From Leptolyngbyaceae cyanobacterium HOT.MB2.61 (GTDB lineage: Bacteria > Cyanobacteriota > Cyanobacteriia > Leptolyngbyales > Leptolyngbyaceae), in the NCBI GenBank assembly GCA_023511615.1, contig JAIMBL010000024.1, forward strand, positions 1 to 34,707: a stretch of DNA of 34,707 nt, in the 5' to 3' direction. The notes under the pieces are model-generated. The model did no database searches, was not told where the DNA came from, and was given only the letters and a program-made list of their open reading frames with translations. Below, in pieces: positions 1-34,707 of this stretch. Position 1 is the stretch's first letter. Each line of letters opens with the position of its first letter. A program made the translations under genes and the position numbers.

Positions 1-106
1 GGTGAAAGAGTAGCCTAAGCTACTCTTTCATCTCAAACAAAATCCCTGGAATATTGATTTTGTTTTGGTGATCAGCGACGCCTATCACCAAACTCTCAGG
101 AGAGCC
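1..106 (-). repeat. MITE-like dispersed repeat, copy 1 (cut by window edge)
   Basis: This is the first of four related copies, in reverse orientation to copies 2 and 4. It ends with the terminal inverted repeat GGAGAGCC at 99-106; the other terminus lies outside the window. It contains a perfect 12-bp hairpin (3-14 pairing with 19-30, loop ctaa), the best preserved version of this stem among the copies. A second imperfect hairpin lies at 67-89. No gene was seen between it and mutL. Confidence 0.85.
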
Positions 107-213
107 AAAGAAATTAGATGTACTGGCAAGTATTTATATAGAAAATCTAACTTCTTAGGAGATCCTTACCTATCCACCATCTACCCACCACTCGTCCAAC
201 CCACTCTCTCCTC

Positions 214-297: not shown

Positions 298-2064
298 ATG
301 CGGTCTGGGATTGAGGCGTTACCGTTAGACGTTGTTCATCTGATTGCGGCGGGTGAAGTCATTGATTCGCTGGCGGCTGTTGTGCGGGAACTTGCAGAAA
401 ATGCTCTGGATGCGGGAGCCAGTCGAATCTCCATCTCTCTCTATCCCAATCAGTGGCGAGTTCGGGTTGCGGATAACGGCCAGGGGATGAGTCTGGAGGA
501 TCTGCAACGGGCAGCCTCTCCCCATACCACCAGCAAAATTCGCGATCGCCAGGATCTGACCAAAATTACAAGCCTGGGATTTCGAGGTGAAGCTTTATAC
601 AGCCTGGCTCAGTTAGCCAACCTGGAAATTGTTAGCCGCCCTGTTGACAGTCAGGAAGGCTGGTGGGTTGCCTATGATGAGCAGGGAAAGCCCTGCCAGA
701 TAGAACCAGCGGCGATCGCACCTGGCACAGTTGTCATTGCTGATAACATCTTTAGCAACTGGCCTGCTCGCCGCCAGAGTTTGCCACCAATGGTCCAACA
801 ACTCAAGGCTGTACAGACCGTAGTCCACCAGATGGCGCTTTGCCATCCCCAGATCACCTGGCAGGTTGAGCAGGATGAATGTGACTGGCTCAAGTTGTGG
901 ATGGGTAAAACTGCGCGGCAGATTCTTCCTCAAATTCTACGAGATGTGCAGGAGAGCGATTTGCAGGAGATCGTTTGGCGAAACGAAGGCGAAGAACCTC
1001 CCATCTCTCCTCTTTTCTGCTCCTCCTCTCTCTACCTTCTTCTCGGACTGCCAGATCGCTGCCATCGTCATCGACCCGACTGGATTCGTGTGGCACTCAA
1101 TGGCCGATTTGTACGCATCCCAGAACTAGAGCAAACCCTTCTGACGGGATTTCGTCGCACCCTGCCACGCGACCGATTCCCCGTTTGCTTTGCCCATTTC
1201 TACATTCCACCCGAACACATTGACTGGAACCGCCATCCGGCCAAATCTGAAGTTTACCTGCACCACCTGGACTATTGGCGAGCCCAACTGACCCACGCAA
1301 TTGATAAAGCCTTACAACTCAGTTCGATCAATCTCTCCGATACCCTCTACTTCGACCGGGCAGGTAAGGTTTTGAAAACCGCGGAAGCGCAGAGTCAGTA
1401 CAATGTCCGCAGGAGTCAGACGACAGGCGACGGGCAACAGGGGGCAGGCGACGGGCAACAGGTGGACAACAGGGGACAGGGGGCAGAACTTGAAACTCAA
1501 AACTCAAAACTTAAAACTCAAAACTCCTCTCTCCGCGCGATCGCCCAGGTTCACAACATGTACATCCTTGCGGAGCATCCATCGGGGGTTTGGCTGATTG
1601 AACAGCACATTGCCCATGAACGAGTGTTGTATGAACAGTTGTGCGATCGCTGGCAAATGGTGCCGCTGCGATCGCCCATTATCCTGAATCAGCTTTCCAC
1701 TGCCCAGGTAGAACAACTGCAACGCCTGGGAATTGATGTGGAGCCCTTTGGTGAGCAAGCCTGGGTTGTGCGTACTGCCCCCGAACTTTTAGTCCAGCGG
1801 GAGGATTGCGCCGCTGCCCTTTGGGAACTGAGTTTGGGCGGTGATTTGCAAATGGCTCAGGTTGCCACCGCCTGCCGTAGCGCTATCCGTAATGGCACCC
1901 CACTCACCCTGGAGGAGATGCAAACCCTCCTTGACCAGTGGCAGCAGACCCGCAACCCCCGCACCTGTCCCCACGGTCGTCCCATTTGTCTCAGTCTGGA
2001 GGAGTCGGCCCTATCCCGTTTCTTTCGCCGCCATTGGGTCATTGGTAAGAGCCATGGAATTTAA
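298..2064 (+). CDS. mutL: DNA mismatch repair protein MutL
   Basis: MutL is the ATPase that links MutS mismatch recognition to downstream repair. The N-terminal GHKL ATPase is clear: IAAGEV at residues 16-21, the E31/N35/D38 helix, then DNGQGM, TSK and GFRGEAL motifs, and HPAKSEV near the end of that half. The C-terminal half has EQHIAHE (435-441), matching the DQHA(X)2E(X)4E endonuclease motif with D-to-E and A-to-I changes, and CPHGRP (557-562), so it is the endonuclease type expected in bacteria without MutH. The linker at about residues 375-410 is encoded by an in-frame short-repeat tract and is unlikely to be structured. The ATG start has little Shine-Dalgarno signal. The stop overlaps the start of the next gene by 11 bp. 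Confidence 0.96.
   Translation: MRSGIEALPLDVVHLIAAGEVIDSLAAVVRELAENALDAGASRISISLYPNQWRVRVADNGQGMSLEDLQRAASPHTTSKIRDRQDLTKITSLGFRGEALYSLAQLANLEIVSRPVDSQEGWWVAYDEQGKPCQIEPAAIAPGTVVIADNIFSNWPARRQSLPPMVQQLKAVQTVVHQMALCHPQITWQVEQDECDWLKLWMGKTARQILPQILRDVQESDLQEIVWRNEGEEPPISPLFCSSSLYLLLGLPDRCHRHRPDWIRVALNGRFVRIPELEQTLLTGFRRTLPRDRFPVCFAHFYIPPEHIDWNRHPAKSEVYLHHLDYWRAQLTHAIDKALQLSSINLSDTLYFDRAGKVLKTAEAQSQYNVRRSQTTGDGQQGAGDGQQVDNRGQGAELETQNSKLKTQNSSLRAIAQVHNMYILAEHPSGVWLIEQHIAHERVLYEQLCDRWQMVPLRSPIILNQLSTAQVEQLQRLGIDVEPFGEQAWVVRTAPELLVQREDCAAALWELSLGGDLQMAQVATACRSAIRNGTPLTLEEMQTLLDQWQQTRNPRTCPHGRPICLSLEESALSRFFRRHWVIGKSHGI
1420..1527 (+). repeat. Short-repeat tract inserted in frame in mutL
   Basis: Two repeat types follow one another: CAGGCGACGGGCAA-like units, then AAACTCAAAACT-like units. 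They encode a Gly/Gln/Asp-rich then Gln/Asn/Ser/Lys/Leu-rich linker. Similar repeat text occurs between genes at 11731-11779 and 31530-31610, so repeats normally found between genes are being translated here. The reading frame is kept through the tract. Confidence 0.75.
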
Positions 2065-3658
2065 GGATGCTGGTGTTGATCTGTTGACTACGGCAATGCA
2101 ACATCACCAGGCAGGACAGTTGCAGGAGGCCGAGCGGCTTTATCGGCAGGTGTTGCAGCAACAGCCCAATCAGCCAGATGCCTTGTATCTATTGGGATTG
2201 ATTGCCCACCAGGTGGGGAATCTGGACGGGGCGATCGCTCTCTACCAGCAAGCCATTGCCTCCCAACCCAACTTTGCTGAGGCTCATAATAATCTGGGGG
2301 CAGCCTTTCAACAGCAGGGGAATTTAGCCGCGGCGATCGCCCACTATCAAGCAACACTGCGAATTAAGCCGGACAATCCCAATGCCAACATCAATCTGGG
2401 GGTGACGCTGCAACAGCAAGGAAAATTGGAGGCGGCGATCGCTCGTTACCAGAAAGCTATTCGCCTTAACCCCAATCTGCCAGAGGCCCACAGCAATCTG
2501 GCCCATGCCCTGAAAGAGCGGGGCGAGTTAGAGCCAGCCATTTCCCACTATCAAACCACTGTGCAGCTTGCCCCCAATAATCCTGAAGCCTATCGGGATC
2601 TGGGGGATGCCTTGCAGGAACAGGGGCGCATTGACGACGCGATCGCCTTACTGGATAGGGCAATCAATCAGTTTCCAAATCACGTCCAACTGCGGGGAAG
2701 CCGCATCCGAGCAAAGCTCATTTCGGGTAACCTGGGCGAAGGTTTTGCTGAGTATGATCCCTGGCGTTTGAGTCTATCCAATCGGGCATTTTCTCAACCA
2801 GCCTGGGATCGTTCTGATCTGAATGGTCGATCCATCCTGCTCTACACCGAAACTGGAGCGGGGATGGGGGATATCATCCAGTTCATTCGCTATGCTCCCC
2901 TGGTTGCCCGGCAGCATGGACGGGTGATTGTAGAGTGTCAGCCTCCCCTCCTGCGACTGTTTCAGTCAATTCCAGGGATTGAAATTGTGATTGCAACAGG
3001 TAATCCACTCCCCCCCTTTGATGTGCAGTCCTCCATCCTGAGTCTTCCTTCTATCTTTGGCACCACCTTAGAAACGATCCCTGCCTCTATTCCCTACTTG
3101 TTTCCGCCTTCGCTCCCTCCGTTCTCCCTGCCGCCTTCACCCCAACCATCCCGTCTCAAGGCTGGCCTCGTCTGGGGTGGCGATCCCAACCACCGCCATG
3201 ACCGCGATCGCTCCTGCCCGGTTCAGGAGTTTCGCCGGTTTTTGACGACTGGAGAGATAGCTTTCTACAGCCTCCAAAAAGGACCGCACAGCGCTGAGCT
3301 GGCAGAAGTTGAAGGATGGCCCATTCAAGATCTGGGACCGCAACTGAATGACTTTGCCGATACGGCAGCGGCGATCGCCCAACTTGACCTGGTTATCTCT
3401 GTCGATACCTCCGTAGCTCACCTGGCCGGTGCTCTGGGAAAACCCGTCTGGATACTGCTTGCCTTTGCTGCCGACTGGCGCTGGCTGATGCACCGGAAAG
3501 ATAGTCCCTGGTATCCAACCGCCCGGTTGTTTCGTCAGCCCCGCCGCCATGCTTGGGCAGAAGTTTGTGATCAGGTTGCCCAGGAGCTACACCGACTTTC
3601 CTCTTACAGCGAGTTTCAAATGCATAAACGGCTCTCCTGGGAGTTTGGTGATAAGTGA
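2054..3658 (+). CDS. TPR protein with C-terminal GT9-like glycosyltransferase domain
   Basis: The N-terminal roughly 220 residues form about six tetratricopeptide repeats with the usual A-x-x-x-Y-x-x-A-I-x-x-x-P pattern. The C-terminal half resembles the heptosyltransferase-like (GT9-related) domain often joined to TPRs in cyanobacteria: GAGMGDIIQF near its start and DTSVAHLAGALGKPVW near its end. Substrate unknown. The frame is open from 1841, but translation probably starts at this ATG, 11 bp inside mutL, where the TPR region begins, implying translational coupling. A proline-rich stretch (about residues 350-367) interrupts the transferase domain. The last ten or so codons and the TGA stop come from the mobile repeat at 3630-3751, so the native C-terminus has probably been replaced. 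Confidence 0.85.
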   Translation: MEFKDAGVDLLTTAMQHHQAGQLQEAERLYRQVLQQQPNQPDALYLLGLIAHQVGNLDGAIALYQQAIASQPNFAEAHNNLGAAFQQQGNLAAAIAHYQATLRIKPDNPNANINLGVTLQQQGKLEAAIARYQKAIRLNPNLPEAHSNLAHALKERGELEPAISHYQTTVQLAPNNPEAYRDLGDALQEQGRIDDAIALLDRAINQFPNHVQLRGSRIRAKLISGNLGEGFAEYDPWRLSLSNRAFSQPAWDRSDLNGRSILLYTETGAGMGDIIQFIRYAPLVARQHGRVIVECQPPLLRLFQSIPGIEIVIATGNPLPPFDVQSSILSLPSIFGTTLETIPASIPYLFPPSLPPFSLPPSPQPSRLKAGLVWGGDPNHRHDRDRSCPVQEFRRFLTTGEIAFYSLQKGPHSAELAEVEGWPIQDLGPQLNDFADTAAAIAQLDLVISVDTSVAHLAGALGKPVWILLAFAADWRWLMHRKDSPWYPTARLFRQPRRHAWAEVCDQVAQELHRLSSYSEFQMHKRLSWEFGDK

Positions 3659-3751
3659 CGCTTATTACCGAAACAAAATCAATATTCCAGGGATTCTGTT
3701 TTAGATGAAAGAATAGCGTAAGCGACTCTTTCACCGGCAAGCCGGAAGAAA
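3630..3751 (+). repeat. MITE-like dispersed repeat, copy 2
   Basis: It starts with GGCTCTCC and runs through the same ordered hairpins as the other copies to CCGGCAAGCCGG at 3734-3745. The right terminus is decayed (GGAAGAAA instead of GGAGAGCC), and no target-site duplication can be seen, so this is probably an older insertion. The first 29 bp are the 3' end of the TPR/glycosyltransferase gene. Confidence 0.88.
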
Positions 3752-3900
3752 CCCCCTAGCCCCTTAAAGCCAGCTTCTAGCTCCTCAAATTGTGGCTAAC
3801 TCAACTGAAAACCCCTGTAAAAGTACCTGGATGGGGAATACCATTTGGGGAAGACCCTGTTCAGTATAGAGGTGCAAAGCCCAGGCACAGGGATAACAGT

Positions 3901-24066: not shown

Positions 24067-25326
24067 ATGGCTAAGTCCCTCTCACCGTGGATTTGTTGCC
24101 AGTTAGGAGCACGGGAACATTATGCAATTCCCCGCGCATTGTATCAGGTAGATCATTTAACTTTGTTGCTCACTGATGCGTGGGTTTCACCGCAGTCAGC
24201 ATTGAATCATCTCCCTGGAAAGATTTCAGCCTCTCTGAAAGGGCGCTTCCATGAAGATCTTGCTAATGCTCCAGTCCGGGCATTCAATTCTTCACTATTA
24301 CAATTTGAGTTGACACAAAAACTCAAGAAAACACCGGCATGGAATCGGATCGTTGCTCGCAACAACTGGTTTCAACAGCAGGCTTTGAGATATTTAAGGG
24401 CGATCGCACCCCAACTCAGCCGCTCCACTGTTTTGTTTTCCTACAGCTACACTGCACTGAATCTGTTTCGTTTTGCGAAACACCAGGGCTGGCAAACGGT
24501 TTTAGGACAAATTGATCCAGGTCCCTTAGAAGAGAAAATTGTTGCAGAGGAGCAGGCGAAACACCCAGGGTTGGAGCCTGCCTGGAATCCAGTGCCACCT
24601 GTTTACTGGAAAACCTGGCAGGAAGAGTGCGCTCTGGCCGATCAGATTATGGTGAACTCCCACTGGTCAGAGCGATTGCTGGAGCAGTGGGGAATTGAGT
24701 CTGCCAAAATTCGGATTGTGCCTTTGGTATACAAGCCACCCCAAGATGCTGTGAGCTTTGTCCGTACCTATCCCCAGGCATTTACTGCTGAACGTCCCCT
24801 GCGGGTGCTGTTTCTGGGAACTGTGACCCTCCGTAAGGGAGTGGCGGCGATCTTAGATGCCATCCAGGATCTACAGGGCAAACCTATTGAGTTCTGGATC
24901 GTCGGTTCTCAGCAAATCACTATTCCTCCCCAATTTCGGGATTATCCTCAGATTCGCTGGATTGGGCAGGTTCCCCGTAGTGAAACCCCACGCTATTACC
25001 AGGGAGCCGATGTTTTTCTGTTTCCCACCCTTTCGGATGGATTTGGACTTACTCAATTGGAAGCCCAGGCCTGGAAATTGCCCATTATTGCTTCCCAGTG
25101 TTGCGGTGAAGTTGTTAGAGATGGAGTTAATGGATGGGTGCTGGAGGAGGTGACGGGAGCGGCGATCGCAAATATCCTTCTATCTGCCATCGATTATCCA
25201 ACTCAGTTAAAACGGCTTTCTGATCAGGCGATTTTGACTTCAAGCTTCAATTTATCATTCCTATCTGGTCAACTCCAAAAACTGGCTGCCTCGCAACCAG
25301 TCCCGGTTCTCCCAGCTTGCCGGTGA
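24067..25326 (+). CDS. Glycosyltransferase family 4 (GT-B) protein
   Basis: This is a cytoplasmic or membrane-peripheral sugar transferase. The C-terminal half has the GT4 pattern: LRVLFLGTVTLRKGVAAIL, RWIGQVPRSETPRYYQGADVFLFPT, then DGFGLTQLEAQAWKLPIIAS, with the nucleotide-sugar-contacting E-x7-E region (its second acid in the QLEAQA segment). The N-terminal acceptor domain is unlike well-known families. It is the first gene of the polysaccharide locus. The last few codons (about seven) and the TGA lie inside mobile repeat copy 3, so the tail has been altered by the insertion. Confidence 0.87.
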   Translation: MAKSLSPWICCQLGAREHYAIPRALYQVDHLTLLLTDAWVSPQSALNHLPGKISASLKGRFHEDLANAPVRAFNSSLLQFELTQKLKKTPAWNRIVARNNWFQQQALRYLRAIAPQLSRSTVLFSYSYTALNLFRFAKHQGWQTVLGQIDPGPLEEKIVAEEQAKHPGLEPAWNPVPPVYWKTWQEECALADQIMVNSHWSERLLEQWGIESAKIRIVPLVYKPPQDAVSFVRTYPQAFTAERPLRVLFLGTVTLRKGVAAILDAIQDLQGKPIEFWIVGSQQITIPPQFRDYPQIRWIGQVPRSETPRYYQGADVFLFPTLSDGFGLTQLEAQAWKLPIIASQCCGEVVRDGVNGWVLEEVTGAAIANILLSAIDYPTQLKRLSDQAILTSSFNLSFLSGQLQKLAASQPVPVLPACR

Positions 25327-25427
25327 AAAAGGAGCATAAGCTACTCTTTCATCTAAAACACAATCCCTGGAATATTGATTTCGTTTTTGTGATAAGCGTC
25401 GCTTATCACAAAACTCTCAGGAGAGCC
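25305..25427 (-). repeat. MITE-like dispersed repeat, copy 3
   Basis: Its 123 bp run from GGTTCTCC (one change from the consensus terminus) to GGAGAGCC. Flanking octamers CCAGTCCC (25297-25304) and CCAATCCC (25428-25435) match at 7 of 8 positions, consistent with an ageing 8-bp target-site duplication. The element overlaps the end of the GT4 gene, and its open frame runs into the next gene, giving a false upstream extension. Confidence 0.9.
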
Positions 25428-25457
25428 CCAATCCCCTTTCGCCATAGGAACTTAAGA

Positions 25458-26396
25458 ATGAATCCCATAGTAACAGTTACTTTTGTCGGCTGGAAACGCC
25501 AGGAAGCCCTTAAAAAGGGCATTGAAAGTACCCTGACGCAAACCTATAACAACATTGAAATTCTGGTTCTGGATAATTCTCCAACCGATGAAATCTATCG
25601 ATGGTTATTAGAAGAATATCCTCAAGTAAAAGCAATTAAAACAGCACACCCGATCCCACTTCCAGCAGCCCGCAATATTTTGGTTGCCACAGCTAAAGGG
25701 AAATATGTCATTTTCCATGATGATGACAGTCGGTTTTCTAGTTCCGAAGATGTTGAAAAAGCTGTTTCCTATCTGGAAACGCATGATAAAGTTGCCTGCC
25801 TGGCTTTTAGAGTTGGAAGTGACAATAACGATGTTAATCCTCAGTTTGAAGCAGATTCAGCCAGGCCTATTTATACTTACATCGCCTGTGCTACTATCTT
25901 CCATCGCTTAGATTTTGCTAATGCTGGCTGGTATTTTGAGGACTTTTGGCTCTATGGTGAAGAGCTCATTATGTCATTAGGTTTTTTCGGACTCGGAAAA
26001 GAAATTCATATATTTCCAGATGTATTTATTATTCATAAACCTGAAACAATTGGGCGTGCAAAAGATAATTGGAGGCAATACCTGGTCGCTGATGTAGTCA
26101 TGAAGCCAGGAGCTTTTCTACTCAAATTTCCAATGCCCAGTGTACTCTTCTGGTATCCAGCATCACTGGTTTTCTATACATTTCAAGCGGCTGTTATGCG
26201 AAGAAAACCACTTTCTGCATTGATGGCTTTCCTTAAGGCTTTATCATTGTTCCCTATCTCCTTGAAAAATAGAAATCCCATTTCAAACGAAGCCGCATTA
26301 AGGTGGCTAGAGGTTCGTAAACAGTACCAGGAAGAGTACTACAAGAGAATTGGGAAATGGACATGGTTCCGTAAATATATTCCAGCTACACATTAG
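25458..26396 (+). CDS. Glycosyltransferase family 2 protein
   Basis: This is a GT-A fold sugar transferase of 312 residues. VTFVGWKRQEAL, STLTQTYNNIEILVLDN and the metal-binding FHDDDSRF (DxD) are the GT2 features, with a hydrophobic segment (about residues 222-245) that could anchor it to the membrane. ATG 25458 follows AGGA at good spacing; the open frame further upstream is only translated mobile repeat. The gene is more AT-rich than its neighbours and has no HIP1 site, suggesting transfer from elsewhere. Confidence 0.88.
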   Translation: MNPIVTVTFVGWKRQEALKKGIESTLTQTYNNIEILVLDNSPTDEIYRWLLEEYPQVKAIKTAHPIPLPAARNILVATAKGKYVIFHDDDSRFSSSEDVEKAVSYLETHDKVACLAFRVGSDNNDVNPQFEADSARPIYTYIACATIFHRLDFANAGWYFEDFWLYGEELIMSLGFFGLGKEIHIFPDVFIIHKPETIGRAKDNWRQYLVADVVMKPGAFLLKFPMPSVLFWYPASLVFYTFQAAVMRRKPLSALMAFLKALSLFPISLKNRNPISNEAALRWLEVRKQYQEEYYKRIGKWTWFRKYIPATH

Positions 26397-26410
26397 CTTT
26401 TATTTGCATT

Positions 26411-27532
26411 ATGGGACTAATGACCAAGATCCGTGTTGTCTTTTATTTAGTTGTGCCATCCCCCTATCAACGGGATCTGTTTTTTGCCCTATCACAACGT
26501 CCTGAAATCGATTTGAAGGTCAATTATCTGGAACCGGCCAGTCCCGATTCACCCTGGCCGCAAAAGGCGTTGCAGCCCTATGAATCCATCCTGCTAGGAC
26601 AGTACCTTTCCTGGGGATCGTCTCGCTTCCATATCAACTGGCATTTGCCCAGCCTTAAAACAGTTGATGTTGTTGTTTTGAATGGATATCAGAGTTTAAC
26701 GTCCCAAATCATTTTGAACCACACTGCAAAACGAATTCCCTGCATTTTTTGGGGTGAAAAGATGGTTGCCTCCTCCGGTGGAGTCAAGGGCAAATTGCAA
26801 AAAGTCCTGGCAGGGGGATTGCAGCAGTGCTGGGCGATCGCTGCTATTGGCTCCAGGGCCGTCGAGGATTACCAGAAACGCTTTCCTGGCAAGCCGATTT
26901 TCAATATTCCCTACTATTGCAACCTGTCCCAATTCGGCACCAATATTCCCCAGCGACCACGGGAACCCGTCACTATTTTGCTATGTGGGCAGATGATTGC
27001 TCGCAAAGGGGTGGATTTGTTGCTGAGTGCCTTTGAACGACTGGTGCGATCGGGTTTCAAAGCTCGCCTTTTACTGGTTGGCCGGGAAGCAGAGTTACCT
27101 CAAATGATGGCAACCCTATCTCCTGAAACCAGACAATGCATCGAATATGCAGGCTTTCAGGCCCCTGAAAACTTGCCTCACTTTTTTCGGCAAGCTGATT
27201 TGTTTGTGTTGCCCAGTCGATATGACGGTTGGGGTGTAGTTGTGAATCAGGCATTAGGAGCGGGTCTACCCATTATTTGTTCAGATGGGGTTGGTGCAGC
27301 CCAGGATCTTGTTGAACCGGGTGTGAACGGATTTATTTTTCAAAATGGTGATGCAGACGGCATCTTTCAGGCCCTGACCCATTATCTTCAAAATCCGGAG
27401 GCAATCCGGACAGCCAGCCAGGCGTCTCTGGCGAAAGCAGCCATCTGGTCGCCTGAAGTGGGGGCAAAACGCTGGCTTGAAGTTTTGGAAAAGTTTACGG
27501 ATCGGAGCGATCGCTTCAGAAAAGAGGTTTAG
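26411..27532 (+). CDS. Glycosyltransferase family 4 protein
   Basis: GT-B sugar transferase of 373 residues. VTILLCGQMIARKGVDLLLSAF opens the donor-binding half, and LPHFFRQADLFVLPSRYDGWGVVVNQALGAGLPIIC carries the GT4 nucleotide-sugar site. The acceptor half (VVFYLVVPSPYQRDLFFAL) resembles other polysaccharide transferases of unknown acceptor. It begins 14 bp after the GT2 gene and is followed 22 bp later by another GT4 gene, so these are one transcription unit. ATG 26420 is an alternative start. Confidence 0.88.
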   Translation: MGLMTKIRVVFYLVVPSPYQRDLFFALSQRPEIDLKVNYLEPASPDSPWPQKALQPYESILLGQYLSWGSSRFHINWHLPSLKTVDVVVLNGYQSLTSQIILNHTAKRIPCIFWGEKMVASSGGVKGKLQKVLAGGLQQCWAIAAIGSRAVEDYQKRFPGKPIFNIPYYCNLSQFGTNIPQRPREPVTILLCGQMIARKGVDLLLSAFERLVRSGFKARLLLVGREAELPQMMATLSPETRQCIEYAGFQAPENLPHFFRQADLFVLPSRYDGWGVVVNQALGAGLPIICSDGVGAAQDLVEPGVNGFIFQNGDADGIFQALTHYLQNPEAIRTASQASLAKAAIWSPEVGAKRWLEVLEKFTDRSDRFRKEV

Positions 27533-27554
27533 AGGTTGTTTAACCGTAAGAACC

Positions 27555-28799
27555 ATGCCCTCTCGTCGCCTGCGAGTTTTATTCCTGGCATCCTACTTTC
27601 CCAAGCCAGATAATCCACTAATGGGTACCTGGGCACTGTCGCAGGCACAGGCGCTTGCCCGCCAGGACATTGATTTACTGGTGGCATCCTTCACTTCCTG
27701 GGTTCCCAAAAGTTTGGCGATCACTTCTGGTGCAAAAGCCTATGCCAGTTGTCCCCGGTCTTATACCTGGGAAGGGGGAGTAGAGGTTCGGTATCCTCGC
27801 TGGCTTTATTACTCGGTCAGGCCGATTAAACACTGGGCCTATGGTAATCCTATTCCTTACCTCAAGCTGGCATGGTGGTCGGCTAAACGTGAGCTTTGCC
27901 GGATGGTTGAAGAATTTCAACCCGACGTGATTTTTTGTCATCACAGTCTACCAAATGGGTGGATGGTGGCTCAGCTTCCAACCAATTTACGCCGACCATT
28001 CATCACCCTGGATCACGATTTTGATGAGATCACAGACTGTCATATTTATCCCTGTCGGAAAAAGGCGATCGCAGTTGTTGCCGATCAGTCCTGGGCCATG
28101 TTAGCAGTCGCCAACCGGATGAAGCGTGATATTCAGCAACTGTTTCCCCAGACCCAGGTTTTGACCCACCACAACGGAGTTGAACCCGTTCCTGAATCAT
28201 TGTTTGATAACCATCGTCCACTGGAATTGCGCAAGAGAAAAGTTATTCTGGCCTGTGCTCTGTTTGCAGAGCGAAAAGGAATCCCCCTCCTGATTGAAGC
28301 CTTTCACCAAATTGCCTCAGCCCATCCCGATGCTGTTTTACGCATTATTGGCAGTGGCCCCGATGAAGAGAGAATCAGGAATACGGTCAATCGACTTGCC
28401 CTGAACCAGAAAGTGCAGCTAATCGGGAAGAAACTACACCATGAGGTACTCCAGGAAATGGTATGGGCGGATTGTTTTGCTCTGGTTGGCTGGGATGAAC
28501 CTTTTGCAACCGTTTATCTGGAAGCGATGGCAGCGGGTTTACCCATTATTTGTTGCAGTGATGGGGGCATTAATGATGTCATCTGTGATGGCGTTCATGG
28601 CTTTGCGGTGCCTCCCAAAAATGTTGCGGCTACTGCCACTGCCCTGGATCGGATGTTAAGCAGTGACGCCAGGCGGATTGAAATGGGGATTCAAGCGCAA
28701 CGACTGATCCATCAAAAATTGACCTGGAATGCCAGAGCGAAAGAGCTTTCAAGTTTGTTTGAAATGGCGGTTTCGGGTCAGATGCAGTATGCCGCGTAA
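27555..28799 (+). CDS. Glycosyltransferase family 4 protein
   Basis: GT-B transferase of 414 residues with FLASYFPKPDNPLMGTW at the N-terminus, LACALFAERKGIPLLIEAF at the donor domain and WDEPFATVYLEAMAAGLPIIC for the donor site, where the E-x7-E acids are EPFATVYLE. A frame-open extension to 27477 lies inside the previous gene and is unlikely to be used. It is most like exopolysaccharide mannosyl- or glucosyl-type transferases, without a firm specificity. Confidence 0.88.
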   Translation: MPSRRLRVLFLASYFPKPDNPLMGTWALSQAQALARQDIDLLVASFTSWVPKSLAITSGAKAYASCPRSYTWEGGVEVRYPRWLYYSVRPIKHWAYGNPIPYLKLAWWSAKRELCRMVEEFQPDVIFCHHSLPNGWMVAQLPTNLRRPFITLDHDFDEITDCHIYPCRKKAIAVVADQSWAMLAVANRMKRDIQQLFPQTQVLTHHNGVEPVPESLFDNHRPLELRKRKVILACALFAERKGIPLLIEAFHQIASAHPDAVLRIIGSGPDEERIRNTVNRLALNQKVQLIGKKLHHEVLQEMVWADCFALVGWDEPFATVYLEAMAAGLPIICCSDGGINDVICDGVHGFAVPPKNVAATATALDRMLSSDARRIEMGIQAQRLIHQKLTWNARAKELSSLFEMAVSGQMQYAA

Positions 28800-28839
28800 T
28801 CAGGTTTGAAAAAGTTAATTACCAACCAGGGGTATCTCC

Positions 28840-30285
28840 ATGTCAACACCAAATTACTCGCTTCAGCCTTTTTCCTATCCATATTTTGAACAGAAGCATT
28901 ACCCACCTGCTGCTTCCGTTGCCAGCACCTCTATCTTTTTAATCGGACTGGCGGCAGCCTATGCGTTTATTCCTACTTCTGCAACTCCTTCGGCAATGGC
29001 GAGGACGGTTGCCATTACAGTGGCGATCGCTTTAGGGATGAGTGTTTATTTGGATAGTAAGAAAGGTCTACAAAACCTTTTTCGTACCGATTTACTATGT
29101 CTGGTTGGATTATATTTTTTAACTCTAGTCGAGTTTCTGTTTCCTCAAGAGGAATTTGATAGGCTTCTGACAGTTGAACAAACCAATCAGGCCATCAGTA
29201 TTGTCTTGATTGGGATGGGTTCTCTAGCGATCGGTCGTCATTTAGTGGGTCAAAAGGCTGCGCGATCAAGCCAGCTCAATTTTGGAGATATTTCAAATCA
29301 ACTACTATTTAATATCGTCATTGTAGCGGCATTTCTAGGATTTCTAGACATGCTGCTCTCAGTTAATTTTGATATTTTCAGAATGATTGATGCCATGATA
29401 GCCCCCAGGTTTGCTCAACCCTGGGGACGAGGCAGATTAGGAGGGTGGCGTACATTTCTGTCCGAACTAAATTTGCTGCTTTATGTAATTCCGGCAATGG
29501 CAGGAGTCGTTTGGAACCGTCGTCGGTCCTTTCCAAAGCTTCAACTTAGTATTATCCTCTTCCTCTTTTTATTTGTTCTATTTCAAGGATTTGCCGGTGG
29601 GACCAGAAACGTCTTTATTGCCTACTTATCTATTTTTGTCGTCAGTTATCTTGTTACGCTGCCAACTCATAATTTTAGAAATACCGTTATTCCGCTCCTT
29701 ATAGCGGGGTTTATCACAGTATTTGCTTCCTATCACATGCTTGAATTTAGAACGATGGGGTTGAGAAATTATCTTGAAAATCAAGTCTATGCCAGTGACA
29801 CTGTGAGAGATACATTGTCCGTTGACTACAACTTATGGTCAATTGGACTAATTGCAGATGCCATACCCAAAAAACATGACTTTCTTGGATTTGAAGTGAT
29901 TTACTGGGCATTGATCCGGCCCATTCCCAGAGTGCTTTTTCCAGATAAGCCAGAAGGTTTAAGTGTCAGTATTGAAGAAATTGTGGATGCTGCAGGGTGG
30001 ACTGTATCATCCACCTATCTGGGGGAAGCTTACATGGCCGGAGGAATGGCTGGAGTTATTCTTATTTCCTTGTTTTTTGGAGCGCTGGCTGCCCGGTGGA
30101 ATCGAATGGCACTGCAACGACAATCCGCCTATGCCATGATGACCTATTCCCTGGGGTTTGCTGCCGCCGGGATCACGATGCGGAGCTTGTTTTGGTTGAC
30201 CACGATGATTTTGCCGGTTATTGCACTACTTCTGTTGAAGAATTTAAAGCTTGTCCGGTTGAAAAAGGTGAATTCTATTCGCTAG
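28840..30285 (+). CDS. Wzy-like polysaccharide polymerase (O-antigen polymerase family)
   Basis: This 481-residue inner-membrane protein has roughly 11 to 12 hydrophobic helices. It has the topology of O-antigen or oligosaccharide repeat-unit polymerases: hydrophobic helices, a long loop between about residues 300 and 395 (SVDYNLWSIGLIADAIPKK ... PRVLFPDKPEG) and a last cluster of helices. Polymerases of this type join lipid-linked repeat units at the periplasmic face. No flippase (Wzx) gene is in this window, so transport must be encoded beyond it. The gene is AT-rich for the region and has a single HIP1 site. Confidence 0.82.
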   Translation: MSTPNYSLQPFSYPYFEQKHYPPAASVASTSIFLIGLAAAYAFIPTSATPSAMARTVAITVAIALGMSVYLDSKKGLQNLFRTDLLCLVGLYFLTLVEFLFPQEEFDRLLTVEQTNQAISIVLIGMGSLAIGRHLVGQKAARSSQLNFGDISNQLLFNIVIVAAFLGFLDMLLSVNFDIFRMIDAMIAPRFAQPWGRGRLGGWRTFLSELNLLLYVIPAMAGVVWNRRRSFPKLQLSIILFLFLFVLFQGFAGGTRNVFIAYLSIFVVSYLVTLPTHNFRNTVIPLLIAGFITVFASYHMLEFRTMGLRNYLENQVYASDTVRDTLSVDYNLWSIGLIADAIPKKHDFLGFEVIYWALIRPIPRVLFPDKPEGLSVSIEEIVDAAGWTVSSTYLGEAYMAGGMAGVILISLFFGALAARWNRMALQRQSAYAMMTYSLGFAAAGITMRSLFWLTTMILPVIALLLLKNLKLVRLKKVNSIR

Positions 30286-30298
30286 TTTTTCTAATCTC

Positions 30299-31528
30299 AT
30301 GAAGGTTCTACATGTAATTCCGTCCATTAGTCCAGTGATGGGAGGGCCTCCCCAAGTGGCTCTTAATCTGGTGAAAGCATTAAGGGAGTGTGGCGTTGAA
30401 GCTGAAATTGTCACGACCAATCACAATGGCTCTGAGCCAATGGAAGTTCCTTTAGGCCAGCGGGTTGATTACCAGTTCGATGTGGATCACAATGCATCAG
30501 TACCTGTCTGGTTTCTTCCCTTTCAACCTCCAGCTTTGAAAGAGTTCATTTTTTCTCCGGCAATTACTCGGTGGTTGTGGCAGCATGTTCAGGATTATGA
30601 CGTTCTTGATAATCATTATTTGTTTTCCTATGTGCCTACCTGTGCTGCGGCGATCGCTCGCTTCAAACGAATCCCCTATACCATTCGCACAATGGGGCAG
30701 TTGACCCCCTGGGCACTCAGTCAAAGCCGCTTAAAAAAACAAATCTATACCACTTTGATTGAACGTCATAATCTGAATCGTGCCGCTGCCATCCACTGCA
30801 CCACAGTCGTTGAAGCCGAAGATGTCCGTAACTTTGGCATCCAGGTACCTACCATCACACTTCCACTGGGCGTCAATCCATCTCCAACTCTGGTTGCACC
30901 CCAGGCTCAGTTACGCGAACAGTACAATATTCCAGCGGAAGTTCCAATCGTTCTATTTCTGTCGCGGCTTCATTACAAGAAGCGTCCTGATCTCCTCTTA
31001 CAATCCCTTGGCCAGCTCCACGCACAAGGGCAACGATTTCACCTGATCCTGGCTGGTGCAGGAGAACCGGATTACCTGACGGAGTTGAAAGATTTAACCG
31101 CATCGTTAGGGCTTACTCCCCATGTGACATTTCCGGGGTTGGTGACGGGACAGGCAAAAGATCTACTGCTGCAAGGAGCGGATCTATTTGTTCTACCTTC
31201 CTATTCTGAAAACTTTGGAATTGCTGTAGCAGAGGCACTGGTTGCCGGTCTGCCCGTGGTGATTACACCAGGAATTCAGATTGCTTCGGAGATTAAGGCT
31301 GCCAAAGCTGGCCTGGTAGTTGATGGAGAGGTTGATTTACTGGCCACAGCGATCGCCCAACTCCTGACTTCCCCAAACCTGCGGCAAGAACTGGGTGACA
31401 ACGGCAGACGACTGGCAAAGGAGCATTATTCGTGGAGAGCGATCGCTCAGAATTTGATTCCAGTCTATTCAATCATTGCAACCCAGAAAAGACTGCAGCA
31501 TGATGTCAATTTTGATTGTTCTGTGTAG
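30299..31528 (+). CDS. Glycosyltransferase family 4 protein
   Basis: GT-B transferase of 409 residues. MKVLHVIPSISPVMGGPP is the classic GT4 start with a glycine-rich acceptor loop. VLFLSRLHYKKRPDLLLQSL and GADLFVLPSYSENFGIAVAEALVAGLPVV form the donor site, with E-x7-E in ENFGIAVAE. It is 13 bp after the polymerase gene, in the same unit. The end of the gene is followed by purine-rich tandem repeats and mobile repeat copy 4. Confidence 0.9.
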   Translation: MKVLHVIPSISPVMGGPPQVALNLVKALRECGVEAEIVTTNHNGSEPMEVPLGQRVDYQFDVDHNASVPVWFLPFQPPALKEFIFSPAITRWLWQHVQDYDVLDNHYLFSYVPTCAAAIARFKRIPYTIRTMGQLTPWALSQSRLKKQIYTTLIERHNLNRAAAIHCTTVVEAEDVRNFGIQVPTITLPLGVNPSPTLVAPQAQLREQYNIPAEVPIVLFLSRLHYKKRPDLLLQSLGQLHAQGQRFHLILAGAGEPDYLTELKDLTASLGLTPHVTFPGLVTGQAKDLLLQGADLFVLPSYSENFGIAVAEALVAGLPVVITPGIQIASEIKAAKAGLVVDGEVDLLATAIAQLLTSPNLRQELGDNGRRLAKEHYSWRAIAQNLIPVYSIIATQKRLQHDVNFDCSV

Positions 31529-31610: not shown

Positions 31611-31635
31611 CACCCATCCACCCCCTCCCTGTTTC

Positions 31636-31758
31636 GGCTCTCCTGAGAGTTTGGTGATAAGCGACACTTATCACCAATACAAAATCAATATTCCAAGGAT
31701 TTTGTTGTAGATGAAAAAGTAGCTTACGCTCCTCTTTCACCGGCAAGCCGGGAGAGCC
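31636..31758 (+). repeat. MITE-like dispersed repeat, copy 4, with intact TSD
   Basis: The best complete copy: 123 bp from GGCTCTCC to GGAGAGCC. A perfect octamer CCTGTTTC flanks it on the left (31628-31635) and right (31759-31766), as expected for an 8-bp target-site duplication. Inside, in order, are CTCTC-ct-GAGAG, a near-perfect GGTGATAAG/CTTATCACC hairpin, a CAAAATC/GATTTTG pairing, a long GAAAGAG-type stem and CCGGC-aa-GCCGG. No protein is encoded. Confidence 0.92.
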
Positions 31759-31777
31759 CCTGTTTCCCAGCGCCCCC

Positions 31778-34600: not shown

Positions 34601-34648
34601 TTTCTTCAGAGGAAGTCTACAGATGAAGAAGCTAGTGTTCCGCCAGGA

Positions 34649-34680
34649 AAATTTTGACGGGTCGCAGACCCTCAAAATTT
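34649..34680. terminator. Long hairpin after the acetyltransferase gene
   Basis: Arms AAATTTTGA-c-GGGTC (34649-34663) and GACCC-TCAAAATTT (34667-34680) pair over 14 bp with one bulged C and a GCA loop. Because the A/T arms supply T-runs on both strands, it is a good candidate for a bidirectional terminator at the end of the locus. A 19-codon open frame (34623-34682) runs through it but is probably chance. Confidence 0.6.
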
Positions 34681-34707
34681 AACCCCCATCAACTTCCTGG
34701 GTATTCG

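What the first reader, a model, noticed from the sequence alone, without database searches (positions are those of the whole stretch)
31628..31766. Complete MITE with perfect 8-bp target-site duplication
Copy 4 has 8-bp terminal inverted repeats (GGCTCTCC / GGAGAGCC) and identical CCTGTTTC octamers on both sides. With copy 3 showing a 7/8 duplication, this shows a mobile, non-autonomous element of about 123 bp. The 8-bp duplication is known for IS1, IS6, IS66 and IS256-type transposases, and IS6 ends also begin GG, but the driving transposase is not in this window.
Basis: seen in the sequence. Interest (0 to 1): 0.75.

Follow-up and report, generated by a model that had tools for sequence, protein, structure and literature searches.

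The report
Cyanobacterial ISL3-type miniature transposable element
This 123-bp stretch is one of roughly 250 copies of a small passenger transposon in a cyanobacterial genome; its ends and its 8-bp target duplications match the ISL3 family of insertion sequences, so it is a real mobile element but of an already known kind.

Summary
Window 31636-31758 is a complete 123-bp element with 8-bp inverted ends and identical CCTGTTTC octamers on both sides. About 249 copies of its left end lie in the 5.29-Mb genome, against 0 for a reversed control. Of 105 full copies with both flanks, 49 have an 8/8 and 29 a 7/8 duplication; shuffled flank pairs reach 7/8 in 0.08%.

The attribution to IS1/IS6/IS66/IS256 is not supported. 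The terminal signature GGYTCTYC-N9-GGTGA and the 8-bp duplication are those of ISL3-family elements (PF01610) in other cyanobacteria (up to 20/26 matching terminal bases). No ISL3 or IS1595 transposase was detected in the own draft assembly, so the driver is lost, unassembled or elsewhere. An ISL3-linked MITE with 8-nt duplications is already published in Microcystis (PMC11448079), so this is a new family of a known kind.

Beyond the finding: the family is nearly confined to this species. MITEs with the same ends but different interiors occur in other Cyanobacteria, Planctomycetota and Chloroflexota. A discrete 56-bp internally deleted form sits at 11 sites, each with a 7-8/8 duplication, and may itself be mobile.

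The parts
31636..31758 (+). complete 123-bp MITE copy (the given finding, 'copy 4')
   Evidence: the query itself; 94% identical to the consensus of 109 full genomic copies
31628..31635 (.). left target-site duplication CCTGTTTC
31759..31766 (.). right target-site duplication CCTGTTTC
31636..31661 (+). left terminal repeat GGCTCTCCTGAGAGTTTGGTGATAAG, inferred transposase-binding end
   Evidence: 249 genomic matches with up to 3 mismatches, reversed control 0; 20/26 identical to ISL3 ends L067 and L250
31733..31758 (-). right terminal repeat (read on the - strand it begins GGCTCTCCCGGCTTGCCGGTGAAAGA)
   Evidence: GGYTCTCC-N9-GGTGA signature shared with the left end
31651..31677 (.). hairpin 1, TTGGTGATAAG/CTTATCACCAA
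   Evidence: 11-bp perfect arms; fold
31677..31707 (.). hairpin 2, AAAACAAAATC-type / GATTTTGTTTT-type arms of the consensus, partly mismatched in this copy
   Evidence: fold of the consensus
31710..31741 (.). hairpin 3, GTGAAAGAGTAGC-type / GCTACTCTTTCAC-type arms of the consensus, imperfect in this copy
   Evidence: fold of the consensus
25305..25427 (-). second full MITE copy, 7/8 duplication (CCAGTCCC/CCAATCCC on the + strand), directly after a GT4 glycosyltransferase gene; the MITE end supplies its present stop codon at 25324-25326
3630..3752 (+). third full copy, no recognisable duplication; supplies the stop codon of the TPR-protein ORF 1841-3658
1..109 (-). fourth copy, cut by the contig end

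Best explanation
It is a non-autonomous ISL3-type miniature element (MITE). It carries only the two ends (about 22-26 bp, GGYTCTCC-N9-GGTGA) that an ISL3-family DDE transposase would bind and cut, around a non-coding, hairpin-rich core of about 75 bp. A transposase supplied in trans would join the ends to an 8-bp staggered target, leaving 8-bp duplications. Shown here: fixed ends, fixed length, 8-bp duplications, about 250 dispersed copies, near confinement to this species, and the shared end signature with ISL3 elements elsewhere. Inferred: that an ISL3 transposase drove it, that this driver has been lost or is missing from the draft, and that amplification has now slowed (copies are 2.4-17% from the consensus, median 7.3%).
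For: Copy number: 126+123 left-end matches in the own genome, reversed control 0. Duplications: 78 of 105 flanked copies with at least 7/8, null 0.08%, and only length 8 stands out. Length classes are sharp: 98 of 128 sampled left ends pair with a right end at 120-127 bp. Insertions avoid genes: 27% of 70 empty-site reconstructions fall in a frame of at least 100 codons, against 88% of random window positions, as expected for random insertion followed by selection. ISL3 elements with PF01610 in other cyanobacteria have matching ends: L250 (1346 bp, GGCTCTCCTGAGTTTATGGTG and GGCTCTCCTGTACTTAAGGTGATAAG), L067 (1248 bp, GGCTCTCCGTAACTTATGGTGATAAG), L075/L084/L072 (about 1800 bp); best 20/26 identities, chance about 4e-8 per comparison. 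Plasmid relatives of L250 are annotated 'ISL3 family transposase'. An ISL3 element of G042 has 8/8 duplications in most copies whose ends were found. G074 and G100 hold both ISL3 remnants and MITEs with the same ends. Precedent: a 187-bp MITE in Microcystis, 8-nt duplications, ends GGCTCTTCG as on ISL3 elements, with two extra insertions in a laboratory strain (PMC11448079). 8 bp is called the classical ISL3 duplication (PMC7643977).
Against: No ISL3 transposase was detected in the own assembly, by PF01610 or by a related protein with E up to 10 (no positive control for that query in this genome), so the driver is inferred from other genomes. Of the 26 terminal bases, most identities to ISL3 lie in the outer 8 and the inner 9; the 9-bp spacer is poorly shared. 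No orthologous empty site was found, because the only same-genus genome is too diverged and rearranged at these places.
Confidence: 0.88

Rival explanations
1. A MITE driven by another 8-bp-duplicating family (IS1, IS6, IS66, IS256, or IS1595).
For: These families also make 8-bp duplications (general knowledge), and no ISL3 transposase was seen in the own assembly.
Against: The ends match ISL3 elements of related genomes at up to 20/26 bases. IS1595 is also absent from the own genome. IS6 ends, as recalled, agree only in the first few bases.
Confidence: 0.06
2. A dispersed structured repeat kept for a function (RNA hairpin, terminator or regulatory element) rather than a transposon.
For: Three stable hairpins. 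Mostly intergenic. Double compensatory cells 29 against a shuffle mean of 12 and maximum of 21.
Against: Precise 8-bp duplications at about 80% of flanked copies. Pairing across copies is barely above shuffles (94.7% against 94.1%), and slid controls give as many double changes (21-35), so no clear selection for structure. No Rfam family. The family is nearly species-specific.
Confidence: 0.04
3. Chance match of a short inverted repeat and a flanking octamer.
For: None beyond the shortness of the two features taken alone.
Against: About 249 genomic ends against 0 in control; duplication statistics.
Confidence: 0.005

Closest known systems
187-bp ISL3-linked MITE of Microcystis aeruginosa PCC 7806 (PMC11448079)
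   Same: Cyanobacterial, non-coding, hairpin-forming, mainly intergenic, 8-nt duplications, ends beginning GGCTCT and shared with ISL3-family elements.
   Different: 123 bp instead of 187 bp; ends GGCTCTCC/GGTTCTCC rather than GGCTCTTCG; about 250 diverged copies rather than about 31-33 identical ones; no driver detected in the own assembly.
ISL3-family insertion sequences (PF01610) of cyanobacteria, e.g. L250 in G074 and L067 in G042
   Same: GGYTCTYC-N9-GGTGA ends (best 20/26), 8-bp duplication.
   Different: Autonomous or formerly autonomous, 1.2-1.9 kb with a transposase; no shared interior was identified, so this is a type II MITE in the sense of PMC10969869.
MITEs of G050 (= Leptolyngbyaceae cyanobacterium MP9P1.79), L051/L048/L044
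   Same: 123 bp (L051, L048), same ends, three hairpins in the same order, 8-bp duplication in L051.
   Different: Interior sequence much diverged; another family of the same class.
Nezha MITE of Anabaena/Nostoc (Zhou et al. 2008, cited in PMC10969869)
   Same: High-copy cyanobacterial MITE.
   Different: Original paper not held, so its ends and duplication length could not be compared here.

Membership tests
[quoted passage not shown]
   123 bp, about 249 ends, no transposase
[quoted passage not shown]
   GGYTCTCC-N9-GGTGA at both ends, 241 exact matches, control 0
[quoted passage not shown]
   8 bp, 78/105 with at least 7/8
[quoted passage not shown]
   same-genus genome too diverged or rearranged at the window sites
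ISL3-derived MITE | ends shared with ISL3-family elements | tested here: met
   in other genomes
ISL3-derived MITE | 8-bp duplication as in ISL3 | tested here: met
   PMC7643977
ISL3-derived MITE | cognate ISL3 element in the same genome (usual, not strictly required) | tested here: not met
   no PF01610 match in the draft assembly; 383 contigs, so an unassembled copy is possible. I therefore claim 'ISL3-type ends and duplication', not a proven ISL3 derivative
ISL3-derived MITE | mobilisation by an ISL3 transposase | not testable with these tools
   needs a transposition assay
IS1595-derived MITE | IS1595 transposase in the genome | tested here: not met
IS6/IS1/IS66/IS256-derived MITE | ends shared with an element of that family | not tested
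   no search with those families; disfavoured by the ISL3 end match

The most novel reading that the evidence does not exclude
The 56-bp form (GGCTCTCCTGAGAGTTTGGTGATAAGCTACTCTTTCACCGGCAAGCCGGGAGAACC, the two ends almost touching) is itself mobile and has inserted at about 11 sites, which would make it close to the smallest possible DDE-transposase substrate, its two ends separated by only a few base pairs.
Probability: 0.5. Interest if true: 0.5.

Novelty: new member of a known kind. Interest (0 to 1): 0.34.

Why it matters
It documents a clean, high-copy ISL3-type MITE burst in one cyanobacterial species and replaces the suggested driver families by a better supported one. The end signature GGYTCTCC-N9-GKTGA is enough to find MITEs in three phyla, so a family-level catalogue of ISL3-type MITEs is feasible. 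The 56-bp form gives a testable lower size limit for ISL3-type transposition.

Tried and rejected
IS1595 as driver: no PF12762 match in the own genome. A full-length partner among widely spaced end pairs: C23 (1066 bp) is two separate MITEs without a transposase ORF, C112 (4.2 kb) is two copies each with its own duplication, and the 212-bp forms are MITEs holding a second small element. Partner by end sequence in 390 genomes of the class: only G074 and G100 ring, and the matches I could pair there are 121-122-bp MITEs. Hairpins under RNA selection: not supported. Rfam: nothing. Orthologous empty site in G001: flanks diverged or rearranged. An apparent 733-codon frame across copy 3 after removing the MITE looked like a split bifunctional glycosyltransferase, but the G001 gene ends at the corresponding place, so the read-through is probably incidental. 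Virus contigs and plasmids: no match. 'Smallest MITE' in the literature: no useful paper; a review cites 39-bp members of QMITE1, so no size record is claimed.

Full report
CHECK OF THE OBSERVATION. The sequence at 31628-31766 reads CCTGTTTC | GGCTCTCC...GGAGAGCC (123 bp) | CCTGTTTC. Three further copies lie in the window: 3630-3752 (+), 25305-25427 (-) and 1-109 (-, cut by the contig end). The window is contig C156 of a 5.29-Mb, 383-contig genome. It is a cyanobacterium: genome G050, listed as 'same class', holds a MITE locus letter-identical to that of Leptolyngbyaceae cyanobacterium MP9P1.79.

A search with the element gave 40 scored copies out of 353 first-look candidates. The end pattern GGYTCTCC-N9-GGTGA gave 121+120 exact matches and 0 in the reversed control. 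The 26-bp left end with up to 3 mismatches gave 126+123, control 0. I pulled about 134 distinct copies. Of 105 full copies with both flanks, the flanking octamers match 8/8 in 49, 7/8 in 29 and 6/8 in 6. Pairing the left flank of one copy with the right flank of another gives at least 7/8 in 0.08%. Identity in the 8-bp register is 83%, and 23-33% for every other length from 2 to 13. The target shows weak preferences just outside the duplication (T, A on the left; T, A on the right), without strong sequence specificity.

ANATOMY. The consensus of 109 full copies is 123 bp; copies differ from it by 2.4-17%, median 7.3%, and the given copy by about 6%. The ends are imperfect repeats of about 22-26 bp (GGCTCTCCTGAGAGTTTGGTGATAAG and GGTTCTCCCGGCTTGCCGGTGAAAGA; 14/26 shared). 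The core folds into three hairpins. Across copies 94.7% of pairs are kept against 94.1% in shuffles, and slid controls give as many double changes, so I see no clear selection for structure. Insertion sites avoid genes: 19 of 70 reconstructed empty sites fall in a frame of at least 100 codons, against 88% of random window positions.

DISTRIBUTION. The left end is absent from the other 41 genomes of the order, including the same-genus genome G001, which holds one truncated copy. Of 390 genomes of the class, only G074 and G100 match besides the own genome; the copies I could pair there are MITEs of 121-122 bp with 8-bp duplications and another interior. G050 has a 123-bp relative with the same three-hairpin layout. 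A scan of 84,980 species for GGCTCTCC-N9-GKTGA-N62..90-TCAMC-N9-GGAGAGCC found 37 stretches, in Planctomycetota, Cyanobacteria and Chloroflexota (Ktedonobacteria, Chloroflexia); most have 7-8/8 duplications although neither the interior nor the flanks were part of the pattern. The end signature thus marks a wider class of MITEs.

DRIVER. ISL3-family (PF01610) elements of related cyanobacteria carry the same kind of ends: L250 in G074 (1346 bp), L067 in G042 (1248 bp), L072/L075/L084 (about 1800 bp, 560-residue type), and one end of L071 in G050. Best agreement with the MITE left end is 20/26, chance about 4e-8 per comparison. The abundant ISL3 element of G042 has 8/8 duplications in most copies whose ends were found. 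Plasmid relatives of L250 are annotated as ISL3 family transposase. In the own draft no PF01610 match was found, nor a match to a related protein, nor IS1595. The driver is thus inferred, not found.

COMPARISON WITH THE LITERATURE. A 187-bp MITE of Microcystis aeruginosa has 8-nt duplications and ends GGCTCTTCG shared with 1215-bp ISL3 elements, and a laboratory mutant carries two insertions more than the wild type (PMC11448079). 8 bp is the classical ISL3 duplication length (PMC7643977). The present element is therefore a new family of a known kind, not a new kind.

THE 56-BP FORM. Besides 120-127 bp, the only sharp short length class is 55-56 bp (5 of 128 sampled left ends; one copy of 111 bp; nothing else below 117). 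The genome holds 11 copies of 54-56 bp, all with the same internal junction and each with a 7-8/8 duplication at a different site. Two readings are open. One is a derivative that transposes as such: there is a single junction class, and a rare variant T at position 7 occurs in 3 of 11 short copies against 1 of 109 long ones (Fisher p about 0.002 by my arithmetic, post hoc, and part of the long sample was retrieved by a pattern that excludes that variant). The other is recurrent deletion in place between two TAAGC repeats that exist in long copies with the GTAA loop variant (11 of about 63 scored loops are GTAA). I cannot decide between them.

VERDICT. Observation confirmed; mobile-MITE reading supported; driver families replaced by ISL3 (0.88). 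Interest is moderate to low because the kind is known; the 56-bp form is the part that could reward follow-up.

Noticed in passing
L276-L280, L282-L284, L286 (L278 and L282 near their ends, the others at the centre), L133:1501-1555, L205:419-472: 56-bp (54-56) internally deleted form of the MITE at 11 sites, same junction, each with a 7-8/8 duplication; possibly a mobile minimal element, possibly recurrent deletion between TAAGC repeats.
   Followed up: partly
L032 about 270-352 and L033 about 205-290: A second small repeat of about 80 bp (GGTAGTGCCC...GGTCTACC) is inserted inside two copies of this MITE, with apparent 8-bp duplications (TAAAACAA; TAAAATCC/CAAAATCC). It looks like another MITE family, and uninterrupted copies of the first MITE serve as its empty sites.
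   Followed up: partly
window 34632-34692: A 60-bp dispersed repeat (GTTCCGCCAGGAAAATTTTGACGGG...) with at least 35 copies at 91-97% identity in the same-genus genome G001, internally palindromic; not identified.
   Followed up: no
window 25305-25326 and 3630-3658: MITE ends supply the present stop codons of two upstream genes, a GT4 glycosyltransferase and a TPR protein.
   Followed up: partly
window 24067-31528: Cluster of glycosyltransferases with a weak Wzy-like polymerase match (below cut-off), probably a polysaccharide locus; the GT2 gene 25317-26396 has no counterpart at the corresponding place in G001.
   Followed up: partly
L096, L099-L101, L103-L105, L108-L110, L112-L125, L128-L132: Planctomycetota MITEs of about 131 bp with the same ends around a long near-perfect palindrome (GTGAGCCGCAAGGCGCTAGCCGCGGGT...), many copies in one MAG, mostly 7-8/8 duplications.
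   Followed up: partly
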